Assembly: GCF_022440845.1 (NCBI RefSeq)
Contig: NZ_JAKNTO010000001.1
Span: forward strand, 1,116,001 to 1,180,000
DNA: 64,000 nucleotides
Reading direction: 5' to 3'
DNA from: Ruminococcus sp. OA3
Lineage (GTDB): Bacteria; Bacillota; Clostridia; Lachnospirales; Lachnospiraceae
Each line of letters begins with the position of its first letter. Position 1 is the stretch's first letter. Below are positions 29,938-60,418 of the stretch, one piece after another. A program made the translations under genes and the position numbers. The notes under the pieces are model-generated. The model was not told the origin of the DNA. It did not search any database and worked only from the letters and a program-made list of their open reading frames with translations.

Positions 29938-30041
29938 CTTGAAAATTCTAAAAAAGAATTTCATTAAATTGACGAAAAGTCAAAACCAACAGTAAAAGGG
30001 ATAAGATAGCCAAGAGTTATCTTGAACTGGAACGAACACTT

Positions 30042-31960
<1,919 letters not shown>

Positions 31961-32077
31961 TCTGGTGGCGATGCGCTTAGGGGAAACACCCGTACCCATC
32001 CCGAACACGATGGTTAAGACTTAAGCGGCCGATGGTACTGCACTGGTGACGGTGTGGGAGAGTAGGTGGCTGCCAGA
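31961..32077 (+). rRNA. 5S ribosomal RNA
   Basis: About 117 nt with terminal helix TCTGGTGGC / GCTGCCAGA and the conserved CCCATCCCGAACACG loop. It lies between 16S and 23S instead of after 23S. Confidence 0.95.
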
Positions 32078-32171
32078 CCATAAAAAAGTTAATGAATCCG
32101 AGCGAGAGCGAAGGATGAATTTAGTTTTTCAGGTCGTTCGCAAAACGAAGTGAAGCGAACTTCCGAAAAAA

Positions 32172-32232
<61 letters not shown>

Positions 32233-32245
<13 letters not shown>

Positions 32246-32350
32246 TTAAGTGGAAACTTCTCGGTAGAGGAGGAAAGGCCCACTTAAGCCCATTAAGTGG
32301 AAACTTCTCAATAGAGGAGGAAAGGCCCACTTAAGCCCATTAGGTGAAAC
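32233..32350 (+). repeat. 47-bp tandem repeat derived from the tRNA-Ile 3' end
   Basis: Units begin at 32233, 32280 and 32327 (the third is partial and diverged). Each unit begins with the palindrome CCACTTAA-GCCCA-TTAAGTGG, whose first half is the T-arm/acceptor end of tRNA-Ile, followed by about 26 bp of flank. Confidence 0.85.
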
Positions 32351-32402
32351 TTCCTAAAACAGGAAAAATCCATTTGAAAAAGCAATAATAAATAAGACCC
32401 AT

Positions 32403-32475
32403 GGGGGTGTAGCTCAGTTGGGAGAGCACCTGCCTTGCAAGCAGGGGGTCAAGGGTTCGAATCCCTCCATCTCCA
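32403..32475 (+). tRNA. tRNA-Ala(UGC)
   Basis: Anticodon loop CTTGCAA gives TGC. Acceptor GGGGGTG pairs with CATCTCC using two G-T wobbles, discriminator A. The first T-stem pair appears mismatched (AAGGG against CCCTC). CCA not encoded. Confidence 0.9.
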
Positions 32476-32566
32476 TTCGGTATGGAAACATACCGGAATA
32501 CAATCAAATACGAAGAAGCAGATGGAAGCAAGCTTCCAGAGTCTCTTAGGATCTGATTGTGCAGAT

Positions 32567-32588
32567 GTACCTTGAAAACCGCATATAC
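32567..32588 (+). other. 5' arm of the 23S processing stem
   Basis: About 21 bases complementary to 35813-35834 after 23S, with one mismatch and one G-U. Confidence 0.75.
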
Positions 32589-32783
32589 GAAAATATCTAT
32601 ATTGATAACATCTCTTATCAGCGAAGCTGATAAGCAAGAAACGTTAGAGATAGGAAAAGACATCCGAGGAACCACAGGCAGAGATGCATGTGGTGAATCA
32701 AACATTGTAAACGCAATGAAACGAAACGCTCGATGCGAAAGCATCGCAAGTACCGACTGTTCCAAACGCTATTGGAGCAGGAA

Positions 32784-35675
<2,892 letters not shown>

Positions 35676-35812
35676 TGAGCACGCAAAGCGTGCGAAGGTC
35701 GTTCGATAGAGCAAAGCGAGATCGAACTTCCCCTGCATAAGCAGAAGGAAGGAAGAGAAGCGGAGATCGAATGACCCGAAAGAAGACGGTAGAAGCGTGG
35801 ATGGATGTAATA

Positions 35813-58828: not shown

Positions 58829-58975
58829 AAAGACTAACTATTAAAAGTCAAGTCCTAAACTAAATTTTTGAATGAATTGCAGAAATGCATTTCAGATATA
58901 TTTAAACTTTGAAAACTGCATGACAAACAGAGCATCTTTACAGGTGCTCAAAAAGGAGATCGGAAAGCAAAAAAG

Positions 58976-60151
58976 TTAAGCGGTTGGGATGTATGGCAGC
59001 CCGGATTTTTCTAACTGATAAATCACTCTGACAAGTTTTTTTGCTGCATGAGATACTGCAACATTATAGTGCTTACCCTCGGCCCTCTTTTTGGCGAGGT
59101 AGGCAGCGAATGTCGGATCCCAATGGCAGACAAATTTAGCCGCATTAAAAAGCGCATAGCGTAGATACCTTGAACCGCGTTTCTCCATATGGGAATAACA
59201 GGATTCCAACTGACCGGACTGATAGGTTGATGGGGATAATCCTGCATAAGCCAAAATTTTATCAGGAGAATCAAACCGGGAAAAATCGCCGACTTCAGCC
59301 AAAATCATAGCACCCATCCGGTAACTGATTCCTGGAATGGTAAGAATCGGAGAATGAATGCCATCCATGATAAGCTTTATTCCCTGTTCGATTTCATCAA
59401 TCTCGGCATTTAGCTCACCAATTAATTTCAAGGTGTGCTTGAGTTCGAGCGATTTGGCCGGCATATTTGACCCGATTGAGGTTCTGGCAGCCTCCCGAAA
59501 CAAGAGGGCGGTATCCCGTCCATAACGTCCGTTGGAGGCTTCGTGAAGCAGGTGGGTCAGTTTGGTAAGATGAGCGTAGGAAATATGGAAAGCACCGGGG
59601 AATTCGCTAAGCAAAGCAGAAACAGATGCCATATGGAGTGTGGGTACTAATTTCTCCAGTTCAGGGAAGAGAATCGTAACCAGCCGTGAAACAGAAGTTT
59701 TCAGTTTTGCCCGCTCTTTGACTTTATCAAAACGGTAACGGGTTAGTGACTTGAGTTCTTCGTTGTGATAAGATGTGTCTGAGTAGGACTTTAAGTTCAC
59801 ATCAGACATGAGCATTGTAGCAATCGTATGGGCATCAGCTTTATCCGTTTTCGTCTTTCTAAGGCTTAGACTTTTTCTGTAAAGATTGGTATGTAACGGG
59901 TTGATAACAAAGGTGGTCAGACCTTTATCAAGAAGATATCCCAAGATGTTATAACTGTAGTGTCCAGTGGCTTCAAGCCCTACTTTTACATTGGTTAACT
60001 CATCTGTAACGGATTCTATTTTCTGATAAAGTACATCAAAACCAATGCGGTTGTTTGGAATGGTAAATGCTTTGAAAAGCACTTCACCATCTGAATTCGT
60101 GATAAAGCAATCATGCTTATCCTTGGCAACATCAATGCCTGCGTATATCAT
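58976..60151 (-). CDS. IS110-family transposase (bridge-RNA-type recombinase)
   Basis: A 391-residue DEDD/serine recombinase. The RuvC-like domain has GIDVAKDKHDC, GLEATGHY and KTDKADAHTIA, supplying Asp, Glu and Asp residues. The C-terminal Transposase_20 domain has IPGISYRMGAMILAEVGD and AYAGLSPSTYQSG, where the catalytic Ser lies. The start at 60151 has AAAAGGAG upstream; a longer frame runs into the noncoding RNA region. All key segments are intact, so the element may be active. Confidence 0.95.
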   Translation of the reverse strand: MIYAGIDVAKDKHDCFITNSDGEVLFKAFTIPNNRIGFDVLYQKIESVTDELTNVKVGLEATGHYSYNILGYLLDKGLTTFVINPLHTNLYRKSLSLRKTKTDKADAHTIATMLMSDVNLKSYSDTSYHNEELKSLTRYRFDKVKERAKLKTSVSRLVTILFPELEKLVPTLHMASVSALLSEFPGAFHISYAHLTKLTHLLHEASNGRYGRDTALLFREAARTSIGSNMPAKSLELKHTLKLIGELNAEIDEIEQGIKLIMDGIHSPILTIPGISYRMGAMILAEVGDFSRFDSPDKILAYAGLSPSTYQSGQLESCYSHMEKRGSRYLRYALFNAAKFVCHWDPTFAAYLAKKRAEGKHYNVAVSHAAKKLVRVIYQLEKSGLPYIPTA

Positions 60152-60194
60152 GACAAAACTCCTTTTAAAGTATTTGATACTGTTTTTAGACCAC

Positions 60195-60381
60195 GGGATC
60201 TCTCTGCAATTGTAACCTCGTTCTAAATAAACCGTCATGCGGTATCTAACTGATTAACAAATGAACAAAGAGACTGTGGTTAGAGCCTTTTTAAAACCAT
60301 CAAGTGGTAGGAGGGATTCACTAATCCACAGTATCTAAAATCAGCATAGCGTATACCTAAGAAAAGGTAAAGAAAAGCTAT
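60195..60381 (-). ncRNA. Candidate bridge RNA of the IS110 element
   Basis: RNA read on the minus strand. A 5' hairpin (CATAGC/GCTATG, 60377-60382 with 60345-60350) is followed by a target-binding loop and a donor-binding loop. Target loop: 11-bp outer stem ACTGTGG-TTAG (60321-60332 with 60273-60283) and apical hairpin ACCA-CTTGA-TGGT. Donor loop: outer stem TCTCTTTG/CAGAGAGA (60266-60273 with 60199-60206) and apical hairpin ACCG-CATGA-CGGT. Target guides GAATCCCTCCT and TAAAAAGG fit the reconstructed target. The two loops abut, and their stem arms share base 60273. Confidence 0.75.
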
Positions 60382-60395
60382 GACTATATAATACG

Positions 60396-60418
60396 AGGAG
60401 GGATTCCCCTCCTTTTTT
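60396..60418 (+). terminator. Remaining half of the target terminator
   Basis: AGGAGGG-ATTC-CCCTCCT followed by TTTTT on the plus strand. It still terminates plus-strand transcription, but the T-rich flank for the minus strand was split off to 58823-58832 by the IS. Confidence 0.8.

What the first reader, a model, noticed from the sequence alone, without database searches (positions are those of the whole stretch)
58833..60397. IS110 element with a readable bridge RNA whose guides match its reconstructed target
Removing 58833-60397 joins GAATAAAAAG to GAGGGATTCCCC and restores a symmetric bidirectional terminator between two convergent operons. On the transposase strand the restored site reads GAATCCCTCCTTTTTA, with core CT. 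The noncoding RNA upstream of the transposase folds into a stem, internal loop and apical hairpin (60273-60332). The left internal strand contains GAATCCCTCCT (11-nt match including core). The right strand contains TAAAAAGG, complementary to CCTTTTTA (8 nt). This is the target-binding-loop logic known from IS621-type IS110 elements. Target choice here is an intrinsic terminator, a sequence type that recurs in genomes and is harmless to genes.
Basis: partly seen in the sequence, partly recalled or inferred. Interest (0 to 1): 0.92.

Follow-up and report, generated by a model that had tools for sequence, protein, structure and literature searches.

The report
Transposon guided to ribosome-binding sites
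This mobile DNA element carries a short guide RNA that steers its insertion, and across its relatives that guide resembles the part of the ribosome that finds gene starts, so most copies land in the ribosome-binding sequences in front of genes; the copy in this window is an exception that sits in a transcription terminator with a look-alike sequence.

Summary
Window 58833-60397 is a complete 1,565-bp IS110 element. A sister species has the empty terminator, joined where predicted.

The reading that terminators are the target does not hold. The second, identical copy in the same genome sits in a Shine-Dalgarno (SD) sequence whose empty site is intact in the sister species. The four other exact CCTCCTTTTTA sites in the genome precede ORFs as SDs do. 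In 94 of 99 copies the loop could be parsed; guides covary with their own targets (0 of 2000 permutations on either side). 53 of 81 unique sites lie at SD spacing before an ORF of at least 60 aa, against 12% at random positions. The pooled guide profile ranks the 16S rRNA 3' tail (the anti-SD) first of 7,304 CT sites in the window.

So this is a clostridial IS110 group whose bridge RNA is programmed toward translation-initiation signals. IS900 of Mycobacterium is known to hit such signals; the RNA basis and anti-SD likeness appeared in no paper found. Some members target other sequences.

The parts
58833..60397 (-). complete IS110 element, 1565 bp, with one of the two AG/CT core copies
   Evidence: identical second copy in the same genome with unrelated flanks beyond 7 and 4 nt; empty sites in a sister species
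58976..60151 (-). transposase/recombinase, 391 aa (MIYAGIDVAKDK...)
   Evidence: PF01548 E=2.7e-42 and PF02371 E=4.5e-23 on the longer ORF; NF033542 IS110 family RNA-guided transposase 203.7 bits, cut-off 140
60273..60332 (-). target-binding stem-loop of the bridge RNA
   Evidence: fold; helices 1 and 2 have 6 pairs with double-sided compensatory changes in 55 relatives
60309..60319 (-). left target guide GAATCCCTCCT with core CT
   Evidence: over 81 unique pairs of the group, left guides match their own target at 5.88 of 8 noncore nt vs 3.86 permuted, 0/2000
60287..60296 (-). right target guide TTTTAAAAAG (complement of CTTTTTAAAA)
   Evidence: over 79 unique pairs of the group, 3.51 of 4 noncore nt vs 2.06 permuted, 0/2000
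60200..60272 (-). donor-binding stem-loop of the bridge RNA
   Evidence: fold and consensus structure
60217..60221 (-). right donor guide ACGAG, complement of the element's own left end CTCGT
   Evidence: across the group it complements the first four bases of the left end in 92 of 92 parsed pairs, in four variants
60244..60252 (-). left donor guide CAGTTAGAT, resembling the right end ...TAGTTAGT
   Evidence: follows the TTAAT (3 loci) and TCAGT (1 locus) right-end variants
60388..60397 (-). left end: core CT plus the -10-like hexamer TATTAT of the circle-junction promoter
   Evidence: TTGAC[TA]-17-(TATTAT, TACTAT, TATAAT or TGCTAT) at the joined ends in 92 of 92 loci with both ends parsed
58846..58851 (-). 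right end: -35-like hexamer TTGACT of the circle-junction promoter
58831..58832 (.). second copy of the core dinucleotide (AG on +) in the flank
   Evidence: empty-site joins

Best explanation
The element is an IS110-group insertion sequence that moves by bridge-RNA-guided recombination. Its RNA has a target loop and a donor loop. The donor loop reads the element's own joined ends. The target loop reads a target with core CT. In this clostridial group the target loop is tuned to Shine-Dalgarno sequences: pooled over the group it comes closest to TCACCTC-CT-TTCTAA, the 3' end of 16S rRNA. The element therefore mostly lands in front of genes, with the transposase antisense to the target gene, the orientation that the guides set. 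Its left end brings its own AG, so the SD core (AGGA, AGGAG or AGGAGG, by site) is rebuilt. Circles re-form a promoter across the joined ends. The window copy went into a terminator because the stem AAAAAGGAGGG looks like an SD and fits this guide. Shown by sequence: ends, empty sites, guide/target and donor/end covariation, RNA structure, promoter geometry, SD enrichment. Inferred: RNA expression, catalysis, and that SD targeting is selected rather than incidental.
For: Second copy in an SD; its empty site in the sister species is unbroken, 95% identity over 354 bases. Guide/target permutation tests. An ATG lies 11-15 nt from the core at 52 of 81 unique sites, against 7 and 15 of 81 in two more distant 5-nt spans; 53/81 have a start plus ORF of at least 60 aa and 62/81 one of at least 20 aa, vs 12% and 25% at random positions. 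In the window's own genome 4 of 4 other exact CCTCCTTTTTA sites precede ORFs of 123-498 codons (L106 with long spacing, ATG at 17), and L105 reads GAATCCCTCCTTTTTA. The guide profile ranks the 16S tail first of 7,304 CT sites, 14.8 vs 10.3 for the next; 4 of 100,000 shuffles of the tail reach it. Mean SD:anti-SD energy over 47 sites: -12.8 kcal/mol empty, -10.4 occupied, -8.0 without the re-supplied AG. Extra genomes: starts behind the target at 4/4 (G242), 2/2 (G374), L177 and L125; a CAT at the expected place in 4/4 copies of a 41%-identical relative, G289 (ORFs not tested).
Against: 19 of 81 sites have no start with an ORF of at least 20 aa at SD spacing, the window site among them. The core is followed by full AGGAGG at 27 of 81 sites, AGGAG at 47, AGGA at 61. 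Three G211 copies target one repeated sequence without an ORF, L182 is not at an SD by this test and L178 only doubtfully. In the window 7 of the 20 best sites by the guide profile are SDs by the same test, vs 13% of random CT sites. Plain AGGAGG words in the same flanks are SDs in 45% of 60 cases, so part of the enrichment follows from the word alone. 23 of 47 sites lose more than 2 kcal/mol of SD pairing on insertion. The 97 outside loci come from two protein searches (80 of 360 genome hits kept) and are related by descent; the permutation tests are not tree-aware.
Confidence: 0.85

Rival explanations
1. The element is programmed for intrinsic terminators; the SD hits are accidents.
For: The window site matches the left guide 11/11; the rebuilt site has an 11-bp stem; the sister species has a terminator there too.
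Against: 6 of 74 unique both-flank sites have any perfect hairpin of at least 6 bp over the core, and only the window site has an 11-bp one. The second copy, the 4 other exact words in the genome and most relatives are SD-like. An unused SD (L105) fits the left guide as well.
Confidence: 0.05
2. Guide and target look alike only through shared ancestry or T/C-rich composition, not base pairing.
For: Loci are related and both guides and targets are pyrimidine-rich.
Against: Permuting targets among guides keeps composition: 0 of 2000 and 0 of 5000 on 57 dereplicated clusters. Rare right guides such as CTAACT, CTATTC, CTCCGT, CTCCAT recur in their own flanks. Donor guide and left end switch together in four variants, 92/92.
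Confidence: 0.03
3. SD sites are over-represented because only insertions outside coding sequence survive; the guide has no special relation to translation signals.
For: AGGAGG words in the flanks are already SDs in 45% of 60 cases; a member that targets a repeated hairpin exists (G211).
Against: Survival would allow any intergenic site; here the site follows the guide, whose pooled profile best fits the anti-SD tail, and a 41%-identical relative hits the SD-to-start region in another register in 4 of 4 copies.
Confidence: 0.2
4. The guide was captured from 16S rRNA sequence rather than reached by drift and selection.
For: L068, L071 and L077 carry ATCACCTCCT on the left, the letters of the 16S tail.
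Against: No single guide among 71 matches all 14 noncore positions; the best have 12. Left and right matches to 16S do not rise together (r -0.13).
Confidence: 0.05

Closest known systems
IS621 bridge RNA system (IS110 group; Durrant 2024, PMC11208160; abstract start and passages seen)
   Same: RNA from the noncoding end with two internal-loop stems; left and right guides for target and donor; CT core; a promoter on the joined ends
   Different: Text searches of that paper for 'Shine', 'ribosome binding', 'terminator' and 'IS900' gave 0. IS621 targets REP sequences (recalled); this group mostly targets SDs
IS900 of Mycobacterium avium subsp. paratuberculosis (IS110 family; Doran 1997 seen only as a cited title; PMC8141618 passages seen)
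   Same: Inserts at translation-initiation signals; motif CATGNNNNNNTCTCCTT, which reads as start codon and SD on the opposite strand
   Different: Explained in the cited title by expression of the antisense hed ORF; no + strand ORF of at least 80 aa lies in this element. The passages seen do not mention a guide RNA. From the printed motif its register resembles the distant relative G289 more than this element
ISEc11/ISEc21 seekRNA elements (PMC11187229; passages seen)
   Same: Noncoding region sets the target; circle junction makes a promoter
   Different: Other targets; 'Shine' occurs 0 times and 'ribosom' once, for a cargo gene

Membership tests
IS110 family | DEDD transposase with the C-terminal Transposase_20 domain | tested here: met
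   Both Pfam domains above cut-off; D7, E60, D103, D106 invariant in 15 aligned sequences (their assignment to the DEDD motif is recalled)
IS110 family | no target duplication beyond the core dinucleotide | tested here: met
   Empty sites carry one AG, occupied sites two
IS110 family | no typical terminal inverted repeats | not tested
   no repeat search was run on the ends
IS110 group (not IS1111) | noncoding RNA region before the transposase (long left end, shorter right end) | tested here: met
   246 nt before the start, 143 nt after the stop
bridge RNA system | target loop whose two strands covary with the two target halves | tested here: met
bridge RNA system | donor loop whose strands covary with the element ends | tested here: met
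   right side 92/92; left side follows two rare end variants, but five loci with end TTAGA keep the common loop TTAGAT
bridge RNA system | RNA expressed, bound by the recombinase, needed for recombination | not testable with these tools
   only a promoter-like junction was seen
elements that target translation-initiation signals (IS900-like targeting) | most insertions at translation-initiation signals | tested here: met
   53 of 81 (ORF >= 60 aa) or 62 of 81 (>= 20 aa) unique sites of the group; the window copy itself is not one

The most novel reading that the evidence does not exclude
A clostridial branch of IS110 has evolved guide RNAs that imitate the ribosome's own mRNA-finding sequence (the 16S anti-SD tail), giving it landing sites in any bacterium that uses SD sequences while rebuilding the SD core of the gene it lands in front of; separate lineages read the same initiation region in shifted registers, and some have drifted from SDs to hairpins.
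Probability: 0.55. Interest if true: 0.75.

Novelty: new variant of a known kind. Interest (0 to 1): 0.62.

Why it matters
It links an old observation (IS900 hits translation starts) to a mechanism found in 2024 (bridge RNA), and shows a target class that is near-universal rather than a repeat or a single gene. It gives about 70 natural guide sets with matched targets, useful for learning which mismatches natural systems tolerate, and it predicts landing sites from the RNA alone.

Tried and rejected
Tested whether guides avoid exact matches to 16S rDNA, which would be a damaging self-target: not supported; 6 of 71 unique guides match at least 9 of 10 seed positions vs 3.5 expected from column shuffles. 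A string check found no insertion at a 16S end among 78 loci.

Looked for an outward promoter or an antisense hed-like ORF that would use the host signals: no + strand ORF of at least 80 aa inside the element; promoter-like hits no more than in shuffles (4 vs 3.6). The scan cannot see the promoter across the joined ends, which are apart in the inserted form.

Rfam at gathering thresholds has no match to the bridge RNA. Plasmid records gave one near-complete relative, Monoglobus. Terminator targeting as a rule: rejected. Third IS110 gene of the genome (L102): another element, not analysed.

Rows dropped before counts: L035, L062, L070, L079, L081 (target loop not parsed); L027 for the donor loop only; L096 for a short flank. 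The structure alignment used 55 of 71 dereplicated sequences. Some viral-contig loci repeat genome loci (L083 shows the same element and flanks as L007); site counts are on unique flanks. Of the 20 extra regions, ends were not resolved for L179, L180 and L181, and L176 stops at a contig edge; L126 was not resolved either.

Full report
Observation. The window holds a 1,565-bp element at 58833-60397 with a 391-aa IS110 transposase on the minus strand. An identical copy lies at another place in the same 4.06-Mb genome, with unrelated flanks apart from TAAAAAG on one side and GAGG on the other. No match to the element was found in the three other genomes held for the genus. One of them, G002, has both empty sites: the terminator site (match over all 600 query bases, 80%, joining AAAG to GAGGG, with small gaps about 4 nt left of the join and inside the hairpin) and the second site (354 bases, 95%, of which 54 lie upstream of the join, with TTTTAAAAAGGAGGTATTTAAAATGG unbroken). 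The other two gave no match to either joined query. Ends and core are therefore settled.

The RNA. The 151 nt of window 60200-60350 (- strand) fold into two stem-loops. Alone this is weak (z -1.28, 22 of 200 shuffles as good), but over 55 relatives (of 71 dereplicated) 98.9% of pair cells are standard pairs, 8 of 29 pairs show compensatory changes, and sliding the structure by 1-3 columns drops pairing to 32-47%. The first loop carries the two target guides, the second the two donor guides. The donor loop's right strand complements the first four bases of the element's left end in all 92 parsed pairs, across four variants (CTCG 69, CTTG 14, CTAC 8, CTGC 1); the left strand follows two rare right-end variants (4 loci), and five loci with end TTAGA keep the common loop. 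At the joined ends a -35-like TTGAC[TA] and a -10-like hexamer stand 17 nt apart in 92 of 92 loci with both ends parsed; where the left end is CTAC or CTGC (9 loci) the right end carries compensating extra bases.

Guides and targets. I collected 99 loci: 2 own, 80 genomic (the best 80 of 360) and 17 viral-contig loci. Target loops were read in 94; 87 had a usable left flank, 85 a right, 78 both. Counting unique pairs (81 left, 79 right), left guides match their own target at 5.88 of 8 noncore positions against 3.86 when targets are permuted, and right guides at 3.51 of 4 against 2.06; no permutation of 2000 reached either value. The result holds with one locus per guide (61) and on 57 clusters (0 of 5000). 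Both copies of the window element fit its guide: window site 11/11 left and 7/10 right, second site 9/11 and 10/10.

What is targeted. On the target gene's strand the core AG opens an SD-like word: AGGA at 61 of 81 unique sites, AGGAG at 47, AGGAGG at 27. An ATG lies 11-15 nt from the core at 52 of 81, against 7 and 15 of 81 in two more distant 5-nt spans. 53 of 81 have a start codon at 8-20 nt with an ORF of at least 60 aa (12% at random positions), 62 of 81 with at least 20 aa (25% at random). AGGAGG words elsewhere in the same flanks pass the 60-aa test in 45% of 60 cases. In the window's own genome CCTCCTTTTTA occurs at four places besides the two occupied ones, and all four precede ORFs of 123-498 codons (L106 with a long spacing, ATG at 17 or TTG at 8); L105 reads GAATCCCTCCTTTTTA, equal to the terminator site over those letters. 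The window's terminator is thus a look-alike, not the rule: 6 of 74 unique sites have any perfect hairpin of at least 6 bp over the core, and only the window's has an 11-bp one.

The anti-SD likeness. A profile from 73 unique guides scores the 3' end of the window's own 16S gene (ATCACCTC-CT-TTCTAA, + strand, 31668) first among 7,304 CT sites, 14.8 against 10.3 for the next; 4 of 100,000 shuffles of the tail score as high. The plain majority consensus of the guides is TTTTTTCCTC-CT-TTCTTAAA, so the likeness is carried by part of the guides at some positions. Individually the guides are not copies of the tail: the best of 71 match 12 of 14 positions, and there is no sign of avoidance or of capture. 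Against a clean picture: 7 of the 20 best profile sites in the window are SDs by the ORF test (13% of random CT sites).

Extra genomes. Of 391 genomes of the class, 24 carry a relative at E <= 1e-100. I fetched 20 regions. Copies of G242 (4 of 4) and G374 (2 of 2), and single loci L177 and L125, have a start codon 9-13 nt from the core with an ORF of at least 30 aa; L178 has only a GTG with 31 codons; L182 has none; three G211 copies share one repeated sequence without an ORF and with a guide that fits it. G289, 41% identical, has four copies whose left target has CAT six or seven bases before the core and whose right target begins CTCC, so the insertion lies between SD and start codon; ORFs were not tested there. 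Ends of L179, L180, L181 and L126 were not resolved; L176 stops at a contig edge.

Consequence of insertion. Because the left end brings its own core, the SD core is rebuilt: mean SD:anti-SD energy over 47 sites is -12.8 kcal/mol empty, -10.4 occupied and -8.0 without the rebuilt AG; 23 of 47 still lose more than 2 kcal/mol. At the window site the hairpin stays on the MFS-gene side with a changed tail. Whether target genes are still transcribed is unknown; a simple promoter scan of the element gave 4 hits against 3.6 in shuffles.

Literature. Bridge RNAs and guide-target covariation are known (PMC11208160, PMC11187229; passages seen). Targeting of translation-initiation signals by an IS110-family element is also known: the title of Doran 1997 on IS900 is cited in PMC8141618, which reports the motif CATGNNNNNNTCTCCTT (passages seen). 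No paper was found that joins the two or reports SD targeting in Clostridia; searches: bridge RNA + IS110, IS110 + Shine-Dalgarno, seekRNA + IS110, IS110 + ribosome binding site + target site, bridge RNA with SD terms, IS110 family/bridge RNA/start codon, IS900 + translation initiation, IS900 + hed gene, IS110 + Lachnospiraceae; of most hits only the listing was seen. Subscription papers and preprints are largely not held. The verdict is a new variant of a known kind.

Noticed in passing
window 30041-35677: The rRNA operon runs 16S, 5S, tRNA, tRNA, 23S (5S before 23S), and the 16S match spans 1,631 nt against a 1,533-nt model, suggesting an insertion, perhaps around 31500-31590.
   Followed up: no
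L041 1751-1850: An element is preceded by a left-end fragment of its own kind that stops at the left-guide core, as if the guide-coding DNA had itself served as a target.
   Followed up: partly
L035 around 1932: This copy has lost the apical part of the target loop, including the right guide, while its transposase frame stays open.
   Followed up: no
L014, L018, L019, L025-L027, L033, L034, L088 and others: A subgroup has a left end about 45 nt longer, with what looks like a second end-like block.
   Followed up: no
plasmid records H5-H12 (Monoglobus pectinilyticus): Eight plasmid records match only 56-76 nt of the element's left-end region, at or within 10 bases of the record's end, which suggests contigs broken at the repeat rather than plasmids.
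   Followed up: no
L167-L169 (G211): Three copies with guide ACACCCACCT sit in one repeated sequence with a CACCT...AGGTG hairpin and no ORF: a lineage that may have moved from SDs to repeats.
   Followed up: partly
L102 (own genome, C1:280795): A different IS110-family gene of the same genome.
   Followed up: no
L067: A stretch just after the donor loop is duplicated in tandem.
   Followed up: no
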